Of a stretch of DNA of 64,000 bases, positions 3,102 through 23,434 are shown one piece after another. Below the pieces are notes generated by a model, which was not told the origin of the DNA, searched no databases, and saw only the letters and a program-made list of their open reading frames with translations. Positions within the stretch are counted from its first letter, which is position 1, and each line of letters opens with the position of its first letter. A program made the position numbers and the translations under genes. The stretch is from Paludibacteraceae bacterium (GTDB lineage: Bacteria; Bacteroidota; Bacteroidia; Bacteroidales; Paludibacteraceae), in the NCBI GenBank assembly GCA_016283095.1, contig JAEEMG010000073.1, positions 1 through 64,000 on the forward strand, in the 5' to 3' direction.

Positions 3102-3980
3102 TTATAATTTCTCAATCTCTTCTAAAGTGAGATTTGTCAACTTCGCAATAAGAGCCGAATCCAAACCTTCTTGTTTCATGCCTGTTGCAATCTGGATGGA
3201 TTTGTTACGTTCTCCCTCTTCTCGTCCTATTTCCTTGCCCTTCTCCATGCCTTCCTCCATGCCGATCTTGTATCCTAGCTCTTCCATGTCCACTTCATCC
3301 TCAAGGCGTTTCATGCTGGCCTCGTAGACGTCTCTCTCCTCATCGGTGAGCGCGGCCACTTTGGCCTTTTCCAGCAGACGCAGCAATCCCTCGTCTGCTC
3401 GCTCATATACTGATTGGTGTATATTGTCCATATCTCCTAGGTTTTTGAAGAAATTAATCCAGATATCTTTTGTTGTGATGTTTTCGGCATCAAACTTGAA
3501 TTTCGGCAAATTTATGAAATATTTTCGATGTCTGTCCCAAAATATCTCACCGGTTTTCACATTGCACTCCGCTGTGCATGTGATCGCATCGTTCAGTCCG
3601 GCCAAACTGTCTCCCATAATGAAGATGCCGATGATTCGTGTGATGTCGTTTTCCATTTTTCCCCATTCTATTCCACGTCTGATCTTCTTACTCATAAGAT
3701 TGAAAATGTAGAAGTTGGCACGTGTCTTGAAAAACTTTTGATACGAGTTCTGCATCTCTATCAGGATAGAGTCTCCTGTCTCTGTGGTGCAGTGGAGGTC
3801 GAACGTAACACCCCGCTGATTAATTGCATCTCGTGGCATCTCCACGTTTTCAAATGTCACACTTGTGATTTTCTCCACGTCTCCCTCTAAGAGAGCATTC
3901 AAAAATGATTTCATGATAATCGGGTCTGACATGCAGTACTTGAACCCGAAATCACATCGTAAGTCGATGTATTTTCCCAT
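3102..3980 (-). CDS. Rpn family PD-(D/E)XK nuclease / putative transposase
   Basis: 292-residue protein of the Rpn/PDDEXK nuclease-transposase family, which promotes RecA-independent recombination and is common in Bacteroidota. The N terminus MGKYIDLRCDFGFKY has the DFGFK signature. The nuclease core shows D in VTFDLHC, then ESxxQ-like IEMQNSYQKFFKTRANFY. The C terminus holds a Gly/Glu/Lys-rich linker (GMEEGMEKGKEIGREEGE) and a short helical tail typical of the family. The ATG at 3980 is preferred over one 12 codons upstream because MGKYI is the usual family start. Stand-alone gene with its own -7-like box (TATATTTG, 4048-4055 minus). Often a mobile-associated gene. It neighbours the repeat-bracketed island. 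Confidence 0.85.
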   Translation of the reverse strand: MGKYIDLRCDFGFKYCMSDPIIMKSFLNALLEGDVEKITSVTFENVEMPRDAINQRGVTFDLHCTTETGDSILIEMQNSYQKFFKTRANFYIFNLMSKKIRRGIEWGKMENDITRIIGIFIMGDSLAGLNDAITCTAECNVKTGEIFWDRHRKYFINLPKFKFDAENITTKDIWINFFKNLGDMDNIHQSVYERADEGLLRLLEKAKVAALTDEERDVYEASMKRLEDEVDMEELGYKIGMEEGMEKGKEIGREEGERNKSIQIATGMKQEGLDSALIAKLTNLTLEEIEKL

Positions 3981-4116
3981 TTTATTTTTGTTTTTAATTT
4001 GTACTGTTTTGTGCAATCTGATAGACTAAACAAAACTTTTTCAGATGCAAATATATAAAATTTTTCAAAACATCACATCATCTCGACATAATGGGTAATC
4101 AAACCATTGGTGATAG

Positions 4117-4198
4117 ATCCTTCTACCGATATCATACGTCTAGCGACGTATCTTTGGAATTTAAATTACAGATGTATTTCCCGACAATTATGAATTAC
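4117..4198 (+). repeat. Left copy of an island-flanking direct repeat
   Basis: About 82 bases are shared with 9913-10001 in the same orientation: the segment from TCCTTCTA through CGTCTAGCGACGTA, TAAATTACAGATG and TTTCCC to CAATTATGAATTA. It contains the inverted repeat ATACGTC-TAGC-GACGTAT in the right copy, with one C/T change at the left edge here. It borders the 3' end of the first LRR gene. Confidence 0.7.
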
Positions 4199-4203
4199 AT
4201 ATC

Positions 4204-4848
4204 TTACTTCCACGTCACAGATTTGCATCCCTCAAATGCATATTTTCCAATTTCTACATCTGCTCTATTATCAATCACAATATCTAATTTCTTGCAACCT
4301 TTAAATGCTAGCCATCCTATTTTTGTCACCGACGATGGTATTTCCACACTTGTTAATCCGCTACAGCCTGAAAATGCTCCATCTCCTATTTCTGTCACCG
4401 ACGTTGGTATTTCCACACTTGTTAATCCGCTACAACCAGAAAATGCTCCACCACCTATTTCTGTCACTGACGTTGGTATTTCTACGCTTGTTAATCCGCT
4501 ACAGCCTGAAAATGCTTCCCATCCTATTTTTGTCACTGATGATGGGATCTTCACGCTTGTCATTCCGCTACAGCCATGAAATGCATGCCATCTTATTGAA
4601 GTAACAGTAAAGAGATATCCACAACATATTGCTTTTTCTGGGATTATGATTGTTTTTTCTGTCTGACCTTCTTCAAATCCTGCCACTTGCACAGTAGATG
4701 TTCCTGTCACCCTATATTTTAATGAAGATGTCGCTTGTTCTCTCTCATCACTGAAATAATACCCGACTGTGGAAAACCACCTAGTACAGAATGGAATAGA
4801 TAGAACCATCAACGCTATTGCAATCGTTATCTTTATTGTTTTACCCAC
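4204..4848 (-). CDS. BspA-like leucine-rich repeat protein (LRR-A)
   Basis: 214-residue exported or membrane-anchored LRR_5/TpLRR protein. Residues about 5-25 form a hydrophobic signal-like segment after MGKTIKIT. At least four repeats of the type AFSGCSGLTSVEIPTSVTEI follow, ending in a capping segment with CKSVTWK. BspA-type LRR proteins are surface adhesins in Bacteroidota and other host-associated microbes; the ligand here is unknown. It is a close paralogue of LRR-B at 9097-9882: both share GYYFSD, IIPEKAICCGYL and TVTSI in the N-terminal part. It is divergent from the T6SS-like operon. An exact Bacteroidota promoter lies at 4871-4901. Confidence 0.85.
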   Translation of the reverse strand: MGKTIKITIAIALMVLSIPFCTRWFSTVGYYFSDEREQATSSLKYRVTGTSTVQVAGFEEGQTEKTIIIPEKAICCGYLFTVTSIRWHAFHGCSGMTSVKIPSSVTKIGWEAFSGCSGLTSVEIPTSVTEIGGGAFSGCSGLTSVEIPTSVTEIGDGAFSGCSGLTSVEIPSSVTKIGWLAFKGCKKLDIVIDNRADVEIGKYAFEGCKSVTWK

Positions 4849-4870
4849 GTCGCAAATGATTTATTTTTTG

Positions 4871-4901
4871 CAAAAATAAAAAGATAAGGTTGCAAATCAA
4901 A
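4871..4901 (-). promoter_or_regulatory. Promoter of LRR-A
   Basis: On the minus strand TTTG (4901-4898), exactly 19 bases, then TATTTTTG (4878-4871) match the Bacteroidota sigma consensus. The start codon is 23 bases downstream of the -7 box. The equivalent region of LRR-B keeps the -7 box but not the -33 element. Confidence 0.75.
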
Positions 4902-4977
4902 ATGATTTTGTCCGTTGGTTTCATATTATATGTTTTCACCGGATTTCTTTTTACATATCAATTTTGTTCCTGTTTTG

Positions 4978-5008
4978 TTTGAATGTAAATAAATTTGCAA
5001 TATCTTTG
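4978..5008 (+). promoter_or_regulatory. Promoter of the Hcp/effector/immunity operon
   Basis: TTTG at 4978-4981, exactly 19 bases, then TATCTTTG at 5001-5008 form a full match to the Bacteroidota consensus. The first start codon is at 5136, so the transcript should carry an AT-rich leader of about 120 bases. No other full promoter was found before the immunity genes. Confidence 0.75.
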
Positions 5009-5135
5009 CACCTGAATTTTACGGTAACTGAAAAAAACATCTTTTTATTGTTTGTTTTGAATGTGGTTGATTGTTTTTTGAATGTGGCGTATGTTTGGTT
5101 AATAAAAATATTAATGTTCTAATTTATAAACTTTT

Positions 5136-5543
5136 ATGTTTGGATATAAGACAGTACTACAATTTGCGTATGGAGGAGTTGTCAATTCAGCCTACGAGTT
5201 AGTGGATTTTTCTTATGATATTTATCAGCACATAGATGTGAAAGGAAAACCACAGAGTAATGTGTTTTTGGGTTCTATCCATTGTATTTATCCAGGTGTT
5301 CCTACTAAAGAATTGATTGACTATATGGTAAATCCATATCGTTACAAAGATGGATCAGTATCTGTCAGTGATAACGAAGGTAGGAAATTGCAGGAAATCT
5401 CTTTTTCCACAGGCACATGTGTAAAGCTAAAATTTGATTATAATCAAGCTGGGAAAGGGTACGTTTCCACAATTTTTGAGATAGCAGCAAAAGGCATCTC
5501 AATAGATAGTTTTTCTGTTGACAATAACTGGACAAACAAATAA
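5136..5543 (+). CDS. tssD: Type VI secretion tube protein TssD/Hcp, copy 1
   Basis: 135-residue protein matching the Bacteroidota (T6SS subtype iii) Hcp family. These proteins stack as hexameric rings to form the expelled tube and also carry effectors. The diagnostic stretch is DVKGKPQSNVFLGSIHCIY, followed by a MVNPYRYKDGSV region, an acidic-hydrophobic middle (ISFSTGTCVKLKF) and the C-terminal DNNW. The length fits the family (about 130). No sheath, baseplate or membrane-complex gene is in the window, so this is an orphan hcp that would have to use an apparatus encoded elsewhere. First gene of the operon; the second tssD starts 5 bases after its stop. The family call is from pattern recognition, not a search. 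Confidence 0.8.
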   Translation: MFGYKTVLQFAYGGVVNSAYELVDFSYDIYQHIDVKGKPQSNVFLGSIHCIYPGVPTKELIDYMVNPYRYKDGSVSVSDNEGRKLQEISFSTGTCVKLKFDYNQAGKGYVSTIFEIAAKGISIDSFSVDNNWTNK

Positions 5544-5548
5544 GAGCT

Positions 5549-5974
5549 ATGGATATACAAAACGCAATCAATTCTATATTTAAGCACCCTGATGGCAATG
5601 TCAACGTTTATTTCGAGTGCTTTGGGAAGCAGTATGAAGTCAAAGAGTTTTCCACATCTTTCTTCCAACCTACCGATGGTAAAGGAGAACCACAGAGCGA
5701 AGTGCATTCTGGGGTGTTGTCGCTTGTGCTCGCATCTATTCCAGATGCTAACATAGCGAGATGGGCCACAAATGATTATTTGCGTGTGAATGGGTCTGTT
5801 GTATTCAAAAATGAGACAGAAAGTCCTATTTTACGCATTGATTTTATCGAAGGAGTGTGTGTCGGATTACGTCAATCCATAAATTTGGGAACTGGCAGCA
5901 CCACATCTTTTTCCATTTCTTCTCCGACATTGAGAATAAATGATTTACTTATCGACAAAGACTGGGTGAAATAA
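5549..5974 (+). CDS. tssD: Type VI secretion tube protein TssD/Hcp, copy 2
   Basis: 141-residue paralogue of the preceding protein. It has the same family stretch DGKGEPQSEVHSGVLSLVL, a YLRVNGSVVFKNE strand pair, IDFIEGVCVGLRQS and a C-terminal DKDWVK. Identity to copy 1 is low outside the signature, so this is an old duplication rather than a recent one. Two different Hcp proteins side by side suggest a mixed tube, or one structural and one effector-carrying Hcp. Its stop is 1 base before the start of the putative effector gene, which implies that effector loading depends on this Hcp. Confidence 0.8.
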   Translation: MDIQNAINSIFKHPDGNVNVYFECFGKQYEVKEFSTSFFQPTDGKGEPQSEVHSGVLSLVLASIPDANIARWATNDYLRVNGSVVFKNETESPILRIDFIEGVCVGLRQSINLGTGSTTSFSISSPTLRINDLLIDKDWVK

Positions 5975-5975
5975 T

Positions 5976-7040
5976 ATGGCAGACAGAATAGCTAAATATA
6001 TCACAGAAAATGATTTCACCATATTGATGATGAATCACTGTAAATTCGATGGTTACGTCATAGGTGTAGGCTTGGCATTCACTAATGAACAGGCATTCTA
6101 TCAATATCTGGATCCATTTTTAAAAGTAAGAAAAATGGGAGAAAGCCAGTATCTTGACACATCATACGAACAATATGAGAAATCATTTAATTATGAAGAA
6201 TCACAGATTGTCACAGCAGATCAAATTTTGTATGGAAAGCTGCGTCAGGCACAGTCTGAAGAAAAAACAGAGATTCCTCAAAAACTGACAAAAGCCGAAA
6301 GAGAAAAAGAACGCGAATGTGTGGCAAATAAGAGTACCAACAACAGTAATTCTGTCAATAATATAAATAATGCTGTTCAATCCGTGCTTTCTACAGCTTC
6401 TTATTTCGGTGGTGAAAGATTGGAAAATATGGCATACGAACCATATAAAATGATCGATCAAAAACTTGTAAAAAGTTGGCAGAACATAAAACCCTTTGCA
6501 AAAATAGGTGTCAACAAAATGACTGATATGGATTTGATGAGAATCATTAGTAAAGATAATAATTTCCATAGTATATCCTATAGTCAACGCTACAACCCAT
6601 TAGCCGTAAAACGCAATGAGGTTTTAAGTGAATTCAGATCCATTCGTGGAGCTGACGCATCCAAAATCATAAGCAATACTACAGGAGGCATAGACAGAGA
6701 AGCTTTGAATATGGCAACTTATGGAGAAAAAACGGCTAGCAGAATACGTTTTATGAAGGGTGCTGGCAAAGCAACTGTTGTGATTCAAGGTGTTGTTAGT
6801 GGATTTTCAATATATGATGCTTATAAAAGAGACAGTTACAGAAAAGGTCGTGTATTGGTAAAAGGTGGTTTAGATATGGCTGTGGCTGCTGGTCTTTGTG
6901 TTTTAGGAGGACCTGTCGGCTGGGGAATTGGAATCGCATATATTGCAGGAGATGTTTTTGGTGTATGGGATAGTGCGATAGATGAAACATACTACTATTT
7001 CAATCCTGAACAAGAAGCAATAGACAAAAGAAAACGTTAA
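5976..7040 (+). CDS. Putative T6SS effector, membrane-acting
   Basis: 354-residue protein with no family I recognise. Residues 1-110 are mixed and lack a signal peptide. Residues about 115-132 are Asn/Ser-rich (NKSTNNSNSVNNINNAVQ), a likely linker. Residues about 297-329 form a hydrophobic, glycine-rich segment (GGLDMAVAAGLCVLGGPVGW then GIGIAYIAGDVFG) resembling glycine-zipper hairpins of pore-forming or translocating toxins. The charged end is EQEAIDKRKR. It follows two hcp genes with 1 base between and precedes five small membrane-protein genes, the classic Hcp-effector-immunity order. Inference: a toxin delivered to the periplasm that inserts into the inner membrane. A structural cargo adaptor role is possible. 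Confidence 0.6.
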   Translation: MADRIAKYITENDFTILMMNHCKFDGYVIGVGLAFTNEQAFYQYLDPFLKVRKMGESQYLDTSYEQYEKSFNYEESQIVTADQILYGKLRQAQSEEKTEIPQKLTKAEREKERECVANKSTNNSNSVNNINNAVQSVLSTASYFGGERLENMAYEPYKMIDQKLVKSWQNIKPFAKIGVNKMTDMDLMRIISKDNNFHSISYSQRYNPLAVKRNEVLSEFRSIRGADASKIISNTTGGIDREALNMATYGEKTASRIRFMKGAGKATVVIQGVVSGFSIYDAYKRDSYRKGRVLVKGGLDMAVAAGLCVLGGPVGWGIGIAYIAGDVFGVWDSAIDETYYYFNPEQEAIDKRKR

Positions 7041-7067
7041 TAAATAAAATGATAATTGTTAAATGAC

Positions 7068-7457
7068 ATGATATCAAAAATTCAAAAATTTTACAGATAT
7101 TTTGTTTACAGGATTTACCATATAAATAATAATGATCCTGAGATGAAAGTAATTTCATTTATTTTTATGGTACATAGTTCTCTTGTTTTGTCTTTTTTTA
7201 TCATATTGGACATTAATTTTGATATTTTTCCTCCTGGTTTTGATAAATCAGATATGTCCTTATTAGCTCTTTTATTCTTTGCTCTTCAATTCCTTATTTT
7301 CTTCCGTCCTAGTAAATGGAAGACATATTTTAAGGAGTTTGAGAATGAGTCGAAAGAGGAAAGACGGAAGGGTTCTTTTCTTGTGTGGGGTTACATAATA
7401 TTTACTTTGTCATTGCCTATACTTATTACTGTCATTTGGGATGCCTTTTTCAGATAA
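7068..7457 (+). CDS. Putative immunity membrane protein, paralogue 1
   Basis: 129 residues. A basic aromatic N terminus (MISKIQKFYRYFVYRIYH) is followed by helix 1 at about 27-50, helix 2 at about 62-78, a conserved basic loop FFRPSKWKTYFKEFENES, and helix 3 at about 104-125 ending TVIWDAFFR. Positive charges place the N terminus and loop 2 in the cytoplasm and loop 1 (DINFDIFPPGFDKSD) in the periplasm. The ATG at 7068 is preferred over a TTG four codons upstream because all five paralogues start MI(S/P)(K/R)I. Three-helix topology recalls immunity proteins of pore-forming colicins, which supports but does not prove the role. Confidence 0.65.
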   Translation: MISKIQKFYRYFVYRIYHINNNDPEMKVISFIFMVHSSLVLSFFIILDINFDIFPPGFDKSDMSLLALLFFALQFLIFFRPSKWKTYFKEFENESKEERRKGSFLVWGYIIFTLSLPILITVIWDAFFR

Positions 7458-7459
7458 AC

Positions 7460-7852
7460 ATGATATCAAGAATTCATAAATTTTATCGGTATTTTGTGTA
7501 CAGGATTTTTCACTTCAATAATGATAGCCCAGAAATTAATGTGATGGTCTTTTTAGGCATGGTACATGGTTCTATTGTTTTGGCTGTATTAATCATCTTG
7601 GACATATTATTTGATATTGGATTTCCACCTAATTTAGACAAATCGGAATGGTATCTATTGGCTCTTTTATTCTTTGCTCTTCAATTCCTTATTTTCTTCC
7701 GTCCTAGTAAATGGAAAACGTATTTTAAGGAGTTTGAAAATGAATCAAAAGAGGAAAAACGAAAGGGTACAATTCTTGTTTGGGGATATATTATTTTTAG
7801 TTCGTTTTCGCCTATATATATTCCTGTTATTTGGGATGCATATTTCAGATAA
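7460..7852 (+). CDS. Putative immunity membrane protein, paralogue 2
   Basis: 130 residues with the same three-helix plan as paralogue 1. It starts 2 bases after the previous stop. The N-terminal third (EINVMVFLGMVHGSIVL) resembles paralogue 3. The predicted periplasmic loop (DIGFPPNLDKSEW) groups with paralogue 5. The cytoplasmic loop RPSKWKTYFKEFENESKEE is the shared block. The C-terminal helix (IIFSSFSPIYIPVIWDAYFR) is its own version. The mixture indicates exchange between copies. Confidence 0.65.
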   Translation: MISRIHKFYRYFVYRIFHFNNDSPEINVMVFLGMVHGSIVLAVLIILDILFDIGFPPNLDKSEWYLLALLFFALQFLIFFRPSKWKTYFKEFENESKEEKRKGTILVWGYIIFSSFSPIYIPVIWDAYFR

Positions 7853-7854
7853 AC

Positions 7855-8244
7855 ATGATACCAAAAATTCAAAGATTTTATAGGTATTTTGTGTACAGGA
7901 TTTTTCATGTTAATAATCATGAACCAGAAATTAATGTGATGGTCATTTTGGGTATGATTCATGGTTCTTATGTTTTATCATGTTTGTTCATATTGTCGAT
8001 TATTTTTCCTTTTGATTATCCTGATTTGGACAAATCAGAAGTGTACATTTTGGCTCTTTTATTCTTTGCTACCCAATTCCTTATTTTCTTTCGTCCTAGT
8101 AAATGGAAAACGTATTTTAAGGAGTTTGAAAATGAATCAAAAGGAGAAAGGAGAAAAGGTTCTTTTCTTGTCTGGGGATATTTAATATTCAGTTTATCAC
8201 TACAAATATTAATCCCTGTCATTTGGGATGCTTTTTTCAAATAA
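7855..8244 (+). CDS. Putative immunity membrane protein, paralogue 3
   Basis: 129 residues, starting 2 bases after the previous stop (MIPKIQRFYRYFVYRIFH). Helix 1 resembles paralogue 2 (EINVMVILGMIHGSYVL). The first periplasmic loop switches to the SIIFPFDYPDLDKSEV type shared with paralogue 4. The conserved basic loop has ESKGERRKGSF, a single E-to-G change from the other copies. Three predicted membrane helices. Confidence 0.65.
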   Translation: MIPKIQRFYRYFVYRIFHVNNHEPEINVMVILGMIHGSYVLSCLFILSIIFPFDYPDLDKSEVYILALLFFATQFLIFFRPSKWKTYFKEFENESKGERRKGSFLVWGYLIFSLSLQILIPVIWDAFFK

Positions 8245-8246
8245 AT

Positions 8247-8636
8247 ATGATATCAAAAATTCAAAAATTTTATAGGTATTTTGTGTACAGGATTTACCAT
8301 ATAAACAATAATGATCCAGACATGAAAGTAATTTCTTTTATATTCATGGTTCATACTGCACATGCTATGTCTTGTCTGTTTATATTGTCTATAATTTTTT
8401 CTTTTGATTACTCTGGGCTTGACAAGTCAGAAGTATCTCTATTGGCTCTTTTATTCTGTCTTCTTCAACTCTTTATATTCTTCAAACCCAATAAATGGAA
8501 AACGTATTTTAAGGAGTTTGAGAATGAGTCGAAAGAGGAAAGACGGAAAGGTTCTTTTCTTGTGTGGAGTTACATAATCGTAAGTTTGGCATTACCTATG
8601 TTTCTACCAGTTATTTGGTTCACTTATTTCAAATAG
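8247..8636 (+). CDS. Putative immunity membrane protein, paralogue 4
   Basis: 129 residues, starting 2 bases after the previous stop. The N-terminal 36 residues are nearly identical to paralogue 1 (IYHINNNDPDMKVISFIFMV). Loop 1 is of the paralogue 3 type (SIIFSFDYSGLDKSEV). Helix 2 and the start of loop 2 are the most divergent of the set (LLQLFIFFKPNKWKTYF, with K and N replacing R and S). The stop is followed by a 21-base spacer, unlike the 2-base gaps between the earlier copies. Confidence 0.65.
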   Translation: MISKIQKFYRYFVYRIYHINNNDPDMKVISFIFMVHTAHAMSCLFILSIIFSFDYSGLDKSEVSLLALLFCLLQLFIFFKPNKWKTYFKEFENESKEERRKGSFLVWSYIIVSLALPMFLPVIWFTYFK

Positions 8637-8657
8637 GAATCATTATACCCATACATC

Positions 8658-9050
8658 ATGATATCAAAAATTCAAAGATTTTATAGGTATTTTGTGTACA
8701 GGATTTACCATATAAATAATAATGATCCTGAAATGAAAGTGATGATGTTTATATGTATAGTTCACAGTTCTCTTGTTTTGGCTAGTTTAATTATATTGGA
8801 TATAATATTTAACATAGGTTATCCTCATGATTTAGACAAATCAGAGTGGACCCTCTTAGTTCTTTTATTTTTTGCTCTTCAATTCCTTATTTTCTTCCGT
8901 CCAAGTAAATGGAAGACGTATTTTAAGGAGTTTGAGAATGAGTCGAAAGAGGAAAGACGAAAGGGCTCCTTTCTTGTGTGGGGTTATATAATATTTACTT
9001 TGTCTTTGCCTATACTTATTACTGTCATTTGGGATGCTTTTTTCAGATAA
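8658..9050 (+). CDS. Putative immunity membrane protein, paralogue 5
   Basis: 130 residues. The N terminus is MISKIQRFYRYFVYRIYHIN. Loop 1 is NIGYPHDLDKSEW, like paralogue 2. The C-terminal third (YIIFTLSLPILITVIWDAFF) is identical in protein sequence to paralogue 1. It is the last intact copy. Two bases after its stop a sixth copy begins but breaks off after about 15 bases. Confidence 0.65.
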   Translation: MISKIQRFYRYFVYRIYHINNNDPEMKVMMFICIVHSSLVLASLIILDIIFNIGYPHDLDKSEWTLLVLLFFALQFLIFFRPSKWKTYFKEFENESKEERRKGSFLVWGYIIFTLSLPILITVIWDAFFR

Positions 9051-9052
9051 AC

Positions 9053-9067
9053 ATGATATCAAGAATT
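9053..9067 (+). pseudogene. 5' remnant of a sixth immunity paralogue
   Basis: The bases ATGATATCAAGAATT, 2 bases after the stop of paralogue 5, are identical to the start of paralogue 2 (MISRI). The sequence then switches to unrelated DNA that leads into the 3' end of LRR-B. This marks a deletion or recombination breakpoint at the right end of the array. Confidence 0.7.
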
Positions 9068-9096
9068 TTTGATGTGGGATATCGCGATGGCTATTA

Positions 9097-9882
9097 TCAT
9101 TTCTTCCACTTCACAGATTTGCATCTCTCAAATGTTCTTTCTCCAACTTTTACGTTGTTTTTAGTATTATCAATCACTATATTTAAATTATAACAATTCT
9201 TAAACGTTTCATCCCCTATTTCTGTCACTGACGACGGGATTTCCACGCTTGTTAATCCAACACATCCATAAAACGCTCTACAATCTATTTCTGTGACAGA
9301 TAATGGCATTTCCATACTTGTTAATCCAATACATCCTTCAAAAACTCTATAACTTATTTTTTTCACTGATGACGGGATTTCAACACTTGTTAATCCGCTA
9401 CAGCCATAAAATGCTTCATGCCATATTTTTTTCACTGACGACGGGATTTCCACGCTTGTTAATCCGCTACAACCGAAAAATGCTCCTCTACCGATTTCTG
9501 TCACTGACGATGGTATTTCCACACTTGTTAATCCGCTACATCTATAAAATGCATAATCTCCTATTTCCGTCACTGATAATGGGATCTTCACGCTTGTCAT
9601 TCCGCTACAGCCAGAAAATGCTCCTCTACCGATTGAAGTAACTGTACAAAGATATCCACAACAAATTGCTTTTTCTGGGATTATGACTGTTTCTTTATTC
9701 TGGCCCTTTTTAAATCCTACCACTTCTACGGTTGTTCCTTTCAAACTGAATTCTAATGGTGATGACGCTTGTTCTCCCTTATCACTGAAATAATATCCGA
9801 CTGCAGATAACCATTTCATACATAAAGGTATAGACATAGCTATCACCGCTACTACAATCGTTATCTTTATTTTTTTACCCAC
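9097..9882 (-). CDS. BspA-like leucine-rich repeat protein (LRR-B)
   Basis: 261-residue paralogue of LRR-A with the same exported N terminus (MGKKIKITIVVAVIAMSIPL) and leader region (GYYFSD, IIPEKAICCGYL). It has about seven repeats of the form AFYGCSGLTSVEIPSSVTEI, roughly two more than LRR-A, and a C-terminal cap CKSVKWKK. Likely a surface-exposed protein; no ligand can be assigned. Homology to LRR-A upstream DNA continues through the start codon and -7 box (TATTTTTG, 9913-9906 minus) and stops there, so the -33 element is missing and expression may differ. It converges on the immunity array. Confidence 0.85.
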   Translation of the reverse strand: MGKKIKITIVVAVIAMSIPLCMKWLSAVGYYFSDKGEQASSPLEFSLKGTTVEVVGFKKGQNKETVIIPEKAICCGYLCTVTSIGRGAFSGCSGMTSVKIPLSVTEIGDYAFYRCSGLTSVEIPSSVTEIGRGAFFGCSGLTSVEIPSSVKKIWHEAFYGCSGLTSVEIPSSVKKISYRVFEGCIGLTSMEMPLSVTEIDCRAFYGCVGLTSVEIPSSVTEIGDETFKNCYNLNIVIDNTKNNVKVGERTFERCKSVKWKK

Positions 9883-9912
9883 GTCGCAAATGATTTATTT
9901 TTTTGCAAAAAT

Positions 9913-10001
9913 AATCCTTCTAGCGATATTATACGTCTAGCGACGTATTTTCCATCTTTGAAAATTAAATTACAGATGGATTTCCCAACAATTATGAATT
10001 A
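9913..10001 (+). repeat. Right copy of the island-flanking direct repeat
   Basis: Same orientation and about 85 per cent similar by eye to 4117-4198, with a small insertion near the centre. It contains the inverted repeat ATACGTC-TAGC-GACGTAT. It lies immediately upstream of LRR-B, whereas the left copy lies downstream of LRR-A. Confidence 0.7.
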
Positions 10002-10219
10002 TGAATTGCGAATTATGAATTATATGGACGACCACAAGGGATCGCCCCTACGGTCTAATTATAATTCTACAGATGGATTTCCCAACAATTATGAATTATG
10101 AATTGCGAATTATGAATTATAAGGGCGACCACAAGAGATCGCCCCTACGGTCTAATTATAATTCTACAGATGTATTTCCCGACAATTATGAATTGTGAAT
10201 TACGAATTATGAATTATAA
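9974..10219 (+). repeat. Tandem 96/97-base repeat, two full and one partial copy
   Basis: Units begin CAGATG(G/T)ATTTCCC at 9974, 10070 and 10167. Each contains AATTATGAATTATGAATT-type runs, and the first two also contain a palindromic block GGGATCGCCCCTACGGTC paired with GACGACC/GGGCGACC. The array fills the space between LRR-B and the efflux TolC gene and ends 1 base before its stop codon. No gene is present at 9883-10220. Confidence 0.8.
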
Positions 10220-10220
10220 A

Positions 10221-11366
10221 TCAATCCTCACAATACACAAACACTTTCAGCAATGATTTGTTGAATTCCTTCACCTGCTCAAGATAAACTTTGTTGTTGT
10301 TGTACCATGAGTCGAACAATGTGGTGTATTCTATTTCTGTGATTCGTCCGCTGTCCAATGTCTTTTTCAGCAGCTGCAATGTCTGATCGAACATGTCTTT
10401 GTCGTACATGCTCGTCAGCTTCACATACTCCTCCACTCTGTTAAGCTCATTGTTGAGAGAGACTTCCAGTTCTGCCGCACGCTGAGAAAGCTCAAGGTTG
10501 GAGACGGTGCTCTCCGCCTGCACCAACTGTTTTTTCCCTCTTGCCGAAAAAATCGGAATGGATGACCCGACAACAAATCCATGGGCTGTCTCTCCGGATT
10601 TCACCATCTTGTAGCCTGCCGACAAACTTGGATGCGACTCCGCTTTTGCCACTTTCATCTGCTGTGCGTTGATTTCAGCCTCAACAGCTATAAGTTCTTC
10701 CATAATAGTGCTCTTTCTGCTGCAGTCTTTCAGATTCTGCGGATACTCACGATCGTTGATCTTAAGTGCTGTGTTGTTGCCTGCCAACGCATTCAGCTGA
10801 AGAGTGTTTTCACTAAGTGAGCGACGTGTTTCGCTATAGTTGGAAAAAGCTGTTATCATACCTATCTGCCCCTCGTTGACTTCAAGGATGTTATATTTTC
10901 CCTCTTCCATTCCTCGCTTGAGTTTCTCGTAATTTACGCGGGACATTTCATAACGTATGGAATCCATCTCCAAAATCTGATTCAAATATATGATCTCCGC
11001 ACATATCTCATAAGCCGATGCGATCACCTCTTTACGTGTTAGCTCATATTCAAGTGAATCACGCTTATAGGCAAGTTTTTCCGCCTTCTTCATTCTGGCG
11101 TATTTTGTAGGGAACGCAAATTCCTGGCTCACCACAAGTTCCATATCATTGGCACTTCCTGGTGATAACAACAGATATTCGACTGACGGATCTTCAAGAT
11201 TACGCTCAGTTCGCATTGAATATTGATTGCTCTCAATTTTTGCTCTGGCAATCTGAATCTGAGGATTATAATTGTCGAGTGCCACAACTATCTCTTTGAA
11301 AGGCATTTCCTTAGCAAAAAGAGATGCTACAACAAAAGAAAAAACGGTTACAAAAAAAGATCTCAT
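10221..11366 (-). CDS. TolC family outer-membrane protein of the metal efflux system
   Basis: 381-residue outer-membrane efflux protein. A signal peptide (MRSFFVTVFSFVVASLFAKE) is followed by two long helical, Glu/Lys-rich halves (for example SRVNYEKLKRGMEEGKYNIL and STVSNLELSQRAAELEVSLN), as in TolC/CzcC proteins. It is slightly shorter than usual. It would form the outer-membrane duct for the RND pump encoded upstream. A repeat cluster separates it from the pump gene by 519 bases, and it has its own exact promoter at 11411-11441, so it can be transcribed on its own. Confidence 0.85.
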   Translation of the reverse strand: MRSFFVTVFSFVVASLFAKEMPFKEIVVALDNYNPQIQIARAKIESNQYSMRTERNLEDPSVEYLLLSPGSANDMELVVSQEFAFPTKYARMKKAEKLAYKRDSLEYELTRKEVIASAYEICAEIIYLNQILEMDSIRYEMSRVNYEKLKRGMEEGKYNILEVNEGQIGMITAFSNYSETRRSLSENTLQLNALAGNNTALKINDREYPQNLKDCSRKSTIMEELIAVEAEINAQQMKVAKAESHPSLSAGYKMVKSGETAHGFVVGSSIPIFSARGKKQLVQAESTVSNLELSQRAAELEVSLNNELNRVEEYVKLTSMYDKDMFDQTLQLLKKTLDSGRITEIEYTTLFDSWYNNNKVYLEQVKEFNKSLLKVFVYCED

Positions 11367-11586: not shown

Positions 11587-11867
11587 TCGAGGATTGTTAA
11601 GGGCGGAACGCCCTAACCCCTCCTCCATAGTGCGAGCCGTAGGCGAGCACATATAAATACAGAGATTAAAGTTTTAAGAGAAAGTCTACAGATTTTTGAG
11701 GAAACAAAACGGAAATGCAATATCTATTGTATTGCCTTTCAGGCAAAATTTTATGATATTGCTGCACTTTCCCGAGACGTTGTCACGGGTTATTCTCGCT
11801 TTGCTCGGTAGCGTCTTTCAGACGAATCTCTCAGGTACCAGACAGGTTTGAAATTTGCCCCTACGAT
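11587..11867 (+). repeat. REP-like repeat cluster 1
   Basis: Three different hairpin elements lie in the 519-base gap between the pump and TolC genes. Element R (11587-11650) has GAGGATTGTTAAG, a GGGCG-GAA-CGCCC stem, CTAACCC and the GTGCGAGCCGTAGGCGAGCA hairpin. Element S (11732-11824) has TTGCC-TTTCA-GGCAA and CGTCTTTCAGACG hairpins with CCCGAGACGT between. Element T (11841-11867) is a decayed form of the GGGCAGGTTTGAAACCTGCC palindrome followed by CCTACGA. All three recur at 23 kb or 56 kb. No open gene is visible in 11442-11885. Confidence 0.75.
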
Positions 11868-23218: not shown

Positions 23219-23278
23219 CGAGGATTGTTAAGGGCAGAATGCCCTAACCCATCCTAATGTGCGAGCCGTAGGCGAGCA
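23219..23278 (+). repeat. REP-like element R, copy 2
   Basis: GAGGATTGTTAAG, stem GGGCA-GAA-TGCCC, CTAACCC, then GTGCGAGCCGTAGGCGAGCA. Compared with copy 1, the inner G-C pair of the first stem is A-T, a compensatory change. Confidence 0.8.
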
Positions 23279-23376: not shown

Positions 23377-23434
23377 GAGGATTGTTAAGGGCGGAACGCC
23401 CTAACCCAACCACTGTGCGAGCCGTAGGCGAGCA
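23377..23434 (+). repeat. REP-like element R, copy 3
   Basis: GAGGATTGTTAAG, GGGCG-GAA-CGCCC (23389-23401), CTAACCC, and GTGCGAGCCGTAGGCGAGCA (23415-23434), in the same orientation as copies 1 and 2. Confidence 0.8.

What the first reader, a model, noticed from the sequence alone, without database searches (positions are those of the whole stretch)
7068..9050. The five membrane paralogues are mosaics with a variable outward loop
Seen by eye: copies 1 and 4 share the first 36 residues, but copy 4 has the loop 1 of copy 3 (FDY..LDKSEV). Copies 2 and 5 share another loop 1 (IG.P..LDKSEW) while copy 2 shares helix 1 with copy 3. Copies 1 and 5 share the whole C-terminal third. The basic loop (RPSKWKTYFKEFENES) is almost invariant. 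Basic residues put that loop in the cytoplasm and the variable loop in the periplasm. Inferred: gene conversion shuffles recognition loops on a fixed frame, like a small library of immunity specificities.
Basis: partly seen in the sequence, partly recalled or inferred. Interest (0 to 1): 0.7.

Follow-up and report, generated by a model that had tools for sequence, protein, structure and literature searches.

The report
Mosaic immunity array against T6SS toxins
Five side-by-side membrane proteins in an uncultured Bacteroidales bacterium look like one antidote to its own injected toxin plus four kept antidotes, three of which match different versions of that toxin found elsewhere in the same genome or in sister species, with their genes partly shuffled by recombination.

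Summary
In detail: five tandem 129-130-aa, 3-TM paralogues (7068-9050) are mosaics. A single tree is rejected for the five alone (two-tree gain 23.5 lnL; maximum 15.7 in 30 null simulations) and overwhelmingly with seven relatives (139.8 vs 22.5; AU tests). They lie behind two Hcp/TssD genes and a 354-aa effector, a distant homologue of Bacteroides fragilis Bfe1; the five are distant homologues of its immunity protein Bfi1. TM1+loop1 segments fall into discrete types. Copy 1 (A) adjoins its own effector; copy 4 (D) equals, over 39/39 residues, the sole immunity protein behind a second effector in the same genome; copies 5 (E) and 2 (B) match sole immunity genes of two sister species; copy 3 (C) has no known partner. 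A sister species with a nearly identical locus shows a sharply bounded ~700-nt replacement of effector tip plus first immunity gene. So this is an orphan-immunity array, probably built by such swaps. Corrections: loops were not recently dealt out among the five; the basic loop is fixed by purifying selection (dN/dS 0.05); dN/dS is below 1 throughout the immunity gene. The kind is known; this allelic, mosaic form in this family appears new.

The parts
5136..5543 (+). TssD (Hcp) paralogue 1 of the unit
   Evidence: Pfam PF17642 TssD E 4e-30
5549..5974 (+). TssD (Hcp) paralogue 2 of the unit
   Evidence: Pfam PF17642 TssD E 1e-26
5976..7040 (+). T6SS effector, 354 aa, distant homologue of Bfe1
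   Evidence: NCBIfam NF053698 bfe1_fam E 1.4e-7, 31 bits vs cut-off 315, residues 5-331
6750..7040 (+). variable tip of the effector (aa 259-354): hydrophobic, glycine-rich C-terminal domain; left edge of the replaced tract near 6711-6751
   Evidence: W vs G006: 10 differences in 5136-6750, 161 in 6751-7457; hydropathy
7068..7457 (+). immunity copy 1, type A: presumed cognate of the window effector
   Evidence: NF053699 bfi_fam E 0.005; first gene after effector; type A also in G001, whose effector tip is nearest to this one
7460..7852 (+). immunity copy 2, type B: orphan; matches the immunity gene behind the G003 effector, and orphans in G001 and G006
   Evidence: bfi_fam E 2e-4; TM1+loop 90% to G003, 97% to G006 second copy
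7855..8244 (+). immunity copy 3, type C: orphan, no partner effector found
   Evidence: bfi_fam E 0.006; no TM1+loop match above 61%
8247..8636 (+). immunity copy 4, type D: orphan; matches the sole immunity gene behind the second effector in this genome (contig C28)
   Evidence: TM1+loop 39/39 aa identical, 10 synonymous and 0 nonsynonymous differences
8658..9050 (+). immunity copy 5, type E: orphan; matches the immunity gene behind the G002 effector, but with the C-terminal part of copy 1
   Evidence: TM1+loop 87% to G002; codons 68-130 94-96% nt identical to copy 1 vs 81% to G002
9054..9069 (+). remnant of a further copy (first five codons, MISRI), shared with G006
   Evidence: tail 99.2% identical in G006

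Best explanation
The locus is a type VI secretion cargo unit: two divergent Hcp/TssD proteins, a Bfe1-like effector with a conserved N-terminal part and an exchangeable hydrophobic C-terminal tip, and an array of membrane immunity proteins. Copy 1 protects against the cell's own effector. Copies 2-5 are orphan immunity genes, each most probably protecting against a different allelic version of the same effector carried by sister lineages. Inferred mechanism: the tip acts in or on the inner membrane from the periplasm, and the 3-TM immunity protein meets it there through TM1, loop 1 and TM3, which set specificity, while the amphipathic N-terminus and the basic cytoplasmic loop form a constant frame. 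Inferred history: homologous recombination brings in an effector tip together with its immunity gene, with crossovers in the conserved effector body and in conserved parts of the immunity genes; it either replaces copy 1 (seen between this genome and G006) or pushes the old immunity gene downstream. Crossovers inside immunity genes leave mosaics. Shown by computation: gene order, homology, mosaicism, discrete types, tip-plus-immunity replacement, purifying selection on an orphan's specificity segment. Inferred: pore formation, contact surface, cross-protection.
For: Gene order and families. Second unit in the same genome with an 85% identical effector and a single immunity gene of type D. One complete unit in each of four same-genus genomes: G001, G002, G003, G006. 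Discrete types: at least 82% identity in TM1+loop within a type, at most 67% between. Copy 4 vs C28, codons 29-67: 10 synonymous, 0 nonsynonymous changes, P=4e-7 if neutral, so the segment is held by selection. W vs G006: 10 differences in 1615 nt of hcp-hcp-effector body, then 161 in 707 nt covering effector tip and copy 1, then 98% identity again between copy 2 and the second G006 copy. Effector-tip distances track immunity distances in the five unambiguous pairs (r=0.64, 4 of 120 permutations), whereas effector-body distances do not track whole-immunity distances (r=-0.05). Effector variation is concentrated at residues 256-300. T6SS apparatus genes (TssR, TssN, TssF, TssG, ClpV-like AAA) on contig C12 of the same genome. 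The G006 second copy is copy 2 up to about codon 106-122 and carries copy 5's four 3'-most distinguishing bases and the same tail, as expected for unequal recombination between array members. Periplasmic Bfe1 kills Bacteroides (PMC6692515).
Against: No experiment on any of these proteins. Only six effector-immunity units are known, so the tip-immunity correlation has little power, and in G001 the type that fits the effector tip is the second gene, not the adjacent one. Type C has no effector partner. Copy 5 pairs a type E loop with copy 1's TM3, so its specificity may be altered. The AF2 model of the effector failed (pLDDT 36), so pore formation rests on hydropathy only. Bfe1/Bfi1 homology is distant and far below the curated cut-offs. 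The genomes appear to be metagenome assemblies (four sister records are titled MAG), in which repeats can be mis-joined.
Confidence: 0.8

Rival explanations
1. Tandem duplication with gene conversion inside the array: the five arose by local duplication of one gene, and conversion now shuffles loops to generate new specificities.
For: Intra-array tracts exist: copies 1-2 codons 68-83 (global p=0.002); the two G006 copies share every variable site from nt 317 to 389 (global p=0.001); copies 1 and 5 share codons 68-130 at 94-96% nt identity.
Against: In TM1+loop, same-array copies are no more alike (66.7% nt) than unrelated ones (66.0%), while same-type copies in other arrays are 90.6% (types were defined on this segment, so the contrast is partly circular, but the 39/39 match of copy 4 to C28 is not). 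Types occur singly beside their own effectors.
Confidence: 0.12
2. The extra copies are decaying leftovers of displaced modules without present function.
For: Truncated remnants end the arrays (9054-9069; first 86-95 nt of a copy in G001, G002, G003).
Against: All five frames are intact; same-type pairs show dN/dS well below 1 over the whole gene (for example copy 4 vs C28: dN 0.034, dS 0.50, P=6e-13).
Confidence: 0.05
3. The mosaics are assembly chimaeras of similar repeats.
For: Draft assembly in 103 contigs; near-identical repeats are hard to assemble.
Against: The same types and mosaic junctions occur in independent assemblies (UBA3743, UBA3844, RUG12804, SIG116); copy 4 and C28 differ at 40 sites, 10 of them synonymous in a segment with no amino-acid change.
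Confidence: 0.03

Closest known systems
Bfe1-Bfi1 effector-immunity pair of Bacteroides fragilis T6SS (NCBIfam NF053698/NF053699; PMC6692515)
   Same: T6SS effector followed by a short membrane-protein gene; homology over nearly the whole length of both proteins; Hcp/TssD genes adjacent here
   Different: Far below the curated cut-offs (31 vs 315 bits; 17-21 vs 100 bits). Published bfi1 is found only in B. fragilis strains as part of bfe1-containing clusters and absent from immunity islands (PMC6692515); here a five-gene allelic array
Vibrio cholerae T6SS immunity gene arrays (PMC5361080)
   Same: Cognate immunity gene first, orphan immunity genes behind it, explained by sequential displacement of effector or effector domain; mosaic genes reported
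   Different: There arrays mix different immunity types that arrive with new modules; here all five are alleles of one family, matched to tip variants of one effector
Acquired interbacterial defence (AID-1, rAID) arrays of Bacteroidales (PMC12247911)
   Same: Bacteroidales orphan T6SS immunity genes, co-oriented, short, AT-rich
   Different: rAID arrays carry a tyrosine recombinase and stand apart from the effector; this array is directly behind its effector and no recombinase was seen beside it
Rhs/CdiA C-terminal displacement with orphan tip-immunity modules
   Same: Toxin tip and immunity gene exchanged together on a constant body (cited in PMC5361080)
   Different: Small 354-aa Hcp-linked effector; tips are alleles of one fold (about 53-78% identical), not unrelated toxin domains

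Membership tests
Bfe1 family T6SS effector (NF053698) | score above the curated cut-off (315 bits) | tested here: not met
   31.3 bits, E 1.4e-7 over residues 5-331: distant homologue, not a member
Bfi1 family immunity protein (NF053699) | score above the curated cut-off (100 bits) | tested here: not met
   16.6-21.2 bits, E 2e-4 to 6e-3 for the five copies
T6SS cargo effector-immunity module | effector gene next to Hcp/VgrG-type carrier genes with immunity gene downstream, in a genome with a T6SS | tested here: met
   TssD pair, effector, array; TssR/N/F/G and ClpV-like on C12; secretion itself not tested
Orphan immunity gene array (Kirchberger type) | extra immunity genes whose nearest relatives sit beside other effectors | tested here: met
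   copies 2, 4, 5 match G003, C28, G002; copy 3 unmatched
Orphan immunity gene array (Kirchberger type) | protection against the foreign effectors | not testable with these tools
   needs expression and competition assays
rAID | tyrosine recombinase next to the array | tested here: inconclusive
   neighbours at 3102-5122 and 9097-11366 show no recombinase by inspection of ORFs; no dedicated recombinase search was made
Pore-forming toxin immunity (colicin E1-like) | small polytopic inner-membrane protein recognising the toxin's hydrophobic part | tested here: inconclusive
   three predicted TM helices, N-in, basic loop inside; no fold match in PDB; interaction untested

The most novel reading that the evidence does not exclude
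The array is a recombining allelic library: a single family of membrane immunity proteins whose TM1/loop/TM3 segments form a specificity code read by the effector's hydrophobic tip, with intragenic recombination making hybrid specificities (for example copy 5: type E loop with type A TM3) that protect against tips not matched by either parent.
Probability: 0.2. Interest if true: 0.75.

Novelty: new variant of a known kind. Interest (0 to 1): 0.5.

Why it matters
How Bacteroidales arrays come to hold several homologous orphan immunity genes (duplication or repeated acquisition) is stated as unresolved for rAID (PMC12247911). Here near-identical loci in two species show a bounded effector-tip-plus-immunity replacement, and three of four orphans can be matched to effectors that still exist. 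That gives predicted who-protects-against-whom pairs and six natural effector tips with which to map specificity in a membrane immunity family.

Tried and rejected
Fold search of the immunity model against PDB: nothing (best E 1.9). AF2 of the effector: pLDDT 36, not used. Viral contigs: no relatives. Genome-contig scan: only the same four sister genomes. Pfam: no family above cut-off for effector or immunity; weak AgrB, CCB1 and DUF hits rejected as below cut-off. Positive selection: not found; dN/dS below 1 in all immunity windows; the only window above 1 is the last nine effector codons, too short to trust. GENECONV-like test on third positions of the five copies: nothing globally significant, so claims about individual intra-array conversion tracts are kept modest. 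PHI at 100-150 nt windows for the five copies alone: not significant. Assembly artefact considered and rejected (see rivals).

Full report
What is there. Five ORFs of 129-130 codons lie head to tail at 7068-9050 on the + strand. Upstream, in the same direction, are two TssD (Hcp) genes (5136-5543, 5549-5974; Pfam TssD) and a 354-aa gene (5976-7040) that is a distant homologue of the Bfe1 T6SS effector; the five small proteins are distant homologues of its immunity protein Bfi1. Both lie far below the curated cut-offs, so this is homology, not membership. The genome holds T6SS apparatus genes on another contig (TssR, TssN, TssF, TssG, ClpV-like) and nine TssD genes. Sister records are titled Bacteroidales MAGs.

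Mosaicism. A single tree is rejected: PHI p=0.0002 for the five copies at 50 nt (not at 100-150 nt) and at every window for twelve sequences; the best two-tree model gains 199 AICc units with a breakpoint near codon 72, and AU rejects most exchanges of trees between segments; in parametric bootstraps the observed gain exceeds all null replicates for the five (23.5 vs at most 15.7, n=30) and for the twelve (139.8 vs at most 22.5, n=16). The twelve are the five plus the immunity gene on contig C28 and six genes from G001, G002, G003 and G006.

Types. The stretch TM1 plus loop 1 (codons 29-67) falls into discrete types: A (copy 1, G001 second), B (copy 2, G003, G001 first, G006 second), C (copy 3), D (copy 4, C28), E (copy 5, G002), F (G006 first). 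Identity is at least 82% within and at most 67% between types. In this stretch copies in the same array are no more alike than unrelated ones, whereas in TM2 plus basic loop they are slightly more alike (86.9% vs 82.0%; label permutation p=0.03).

Matching effectors. There are six full-length effectors in all: window, C28 (85% identical; same genome), and one each in G001, G002, G003, G006. Three of them (C28, G002, G003) are followed by a single intact immunity gene, of type D, E and B. These are three of the four extra types in the window array. Effector variation is concentrated at residues 256-300. Tip distances track immunity distances for the five unambiguous pairs (r=0.64, 4 of 120 permutations), while effector-body distances do not track whole-immunity distances (r=-0.05). 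For G001 the second gene (type A) fits its effector tip, which is closest to the window's; with that choice r=0.82 (1 of 720), but the choice was made after seeing the data. Many region pairs were tried, so these p-values are descriptive.

A natural replacement. Between the window and G006, the hcp-hcp-effector body differs at 10 of 1615 positions, then from 6751 to 7457 at 161 of 707, and copy 2 matches the second G006 copy at 98%. The replaced tract is the effector tip plus the whole first immunity gene. The downstream tail is 99% identical. The G006 second copy carries copy 5's bases at its last four differences from copy 2 (nt 321, 369, 381, 383) and is followed by the same tail, which fits loss (or gain) of copies 3-5 by unequal recombination.

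Selection. The basic loop is conserved in protein but not in DNA (dN 0.05, dS 0.9-1.2), so purifying selection, not recent conversion, fixes it. TM1+loop has dN/dS of about 0.3; no immunity window exceeds 1. Copy 4 and the C28 gene differ by 10 synonymous and no nonsynonymous changes in codons 29-67 (P=4e-7 if neutral): the orphan's specificity segment is maintained.

Topology. Three hydrophobic segments (about 28-46, 61-80, 105-123); 4-5 K/R in the N-terminal 28 residues and 8 K/R in residues 80-104 against 1 in loop 1; AF2 (11 sequences, pLDDT 84) gives helices 4-17, 24-53, 60-78, 81-92, 96-127. By the positive-inside rule the N-terminus and basic loop are cytoplasmic, loop 1 and the C-terminus periplasmic. 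This is prediction. No fold match in PDB.

Mechanism proposed. The effector is delivered to the periplasm (Bfe1 kills when sent there; PMC6692515), its hydrophobic glycine-rich tip enters or attacks the inner membrane, and a type-matched immunity protein blocks it there. An array of types lets a cell survive neighbours that carry other tips. Arrays grow and change because incoming tip-plus-immunity fragments recombine in conserved sequence. Pore formation and the contact surface are inference; membrane location of immunity proteins is the rule for pore-forming toxins (PMC9558359).

Known context. Sequential displacement of effectors leaving immunity arrays is described for Vibrio cholerae, with mosaic genes (PMC5361080). 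Bacteroidales AID and rAID arrays are known, and how a rAID array comes to hold two homologous copies is stated as unclear (PMC12247911). What differs here is an allelic series of one membrane immunity family, matched to tip alleles of one effector, with crossovers inside the immunity genes. Bfi-family arrays occur elsewhere in the order: G321 has three tandem matches and G344 two.

Limits. No function was tested. Six effectors only. Draft assemblies. Copy 3 is unmatched, and copy 5 has a type E loop but copy 1's TM3.

Noticed in passing
L020 (G000 contig C12) 2918-8720, - strand: A parallel unit at the main T6SS locus: TssD pair, a 503-aa effector with a Bfe1-like N-terminus (NF053698 E 3e-6, residues 9-129) and at least seven tandem immunity-like paralogues in two groups, again with near-identical ends and divergent middles (for example 96% falling to 45% nt identity).
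   Followed up: partly
L040 6178-6987 (-), L020 7212-8720 (-), window 5976-7040: The N-terminal ~100 residues of Bfe1-like effectors recur on effectors with different C-termini, always behind a TssD pair: a likely delivery domain.
   Followed up: partly
L041 1540-7927 and 11172-12340: A 1993-aa protein ends in an 84-aa stretch like the effector tip (39% identical) and is followed by a Bfi-like gene; a 256-aa protein nearby does the same. The tip-immunity module is not confined to Hcp-linked effectors.
   Followed up: partly
window 11596-11618, 23227-23249, 23384-23406; L019, L036, L037, L039 at array ends: A dispersed short element with the palindrome GTTAAGGGCGGAACGCCCTAACC (0 expected by chance) sits just after truncated immunity starts in several sister arrays, in either orientation; it may help array breakage or growth.
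   Followed up: no
window 4204-4848 and 9097-9882, - strand: Two related leucine-rich-repeat (BspA-like) genes flank the T6SS unit as a large inverted-context repeat; they could provide homology for moving the unit.
   Followed up: no
window 9971-10261: Three 97-nt tandem repeats in the intergenic region (97% and 61% identity).
   Followed up: no
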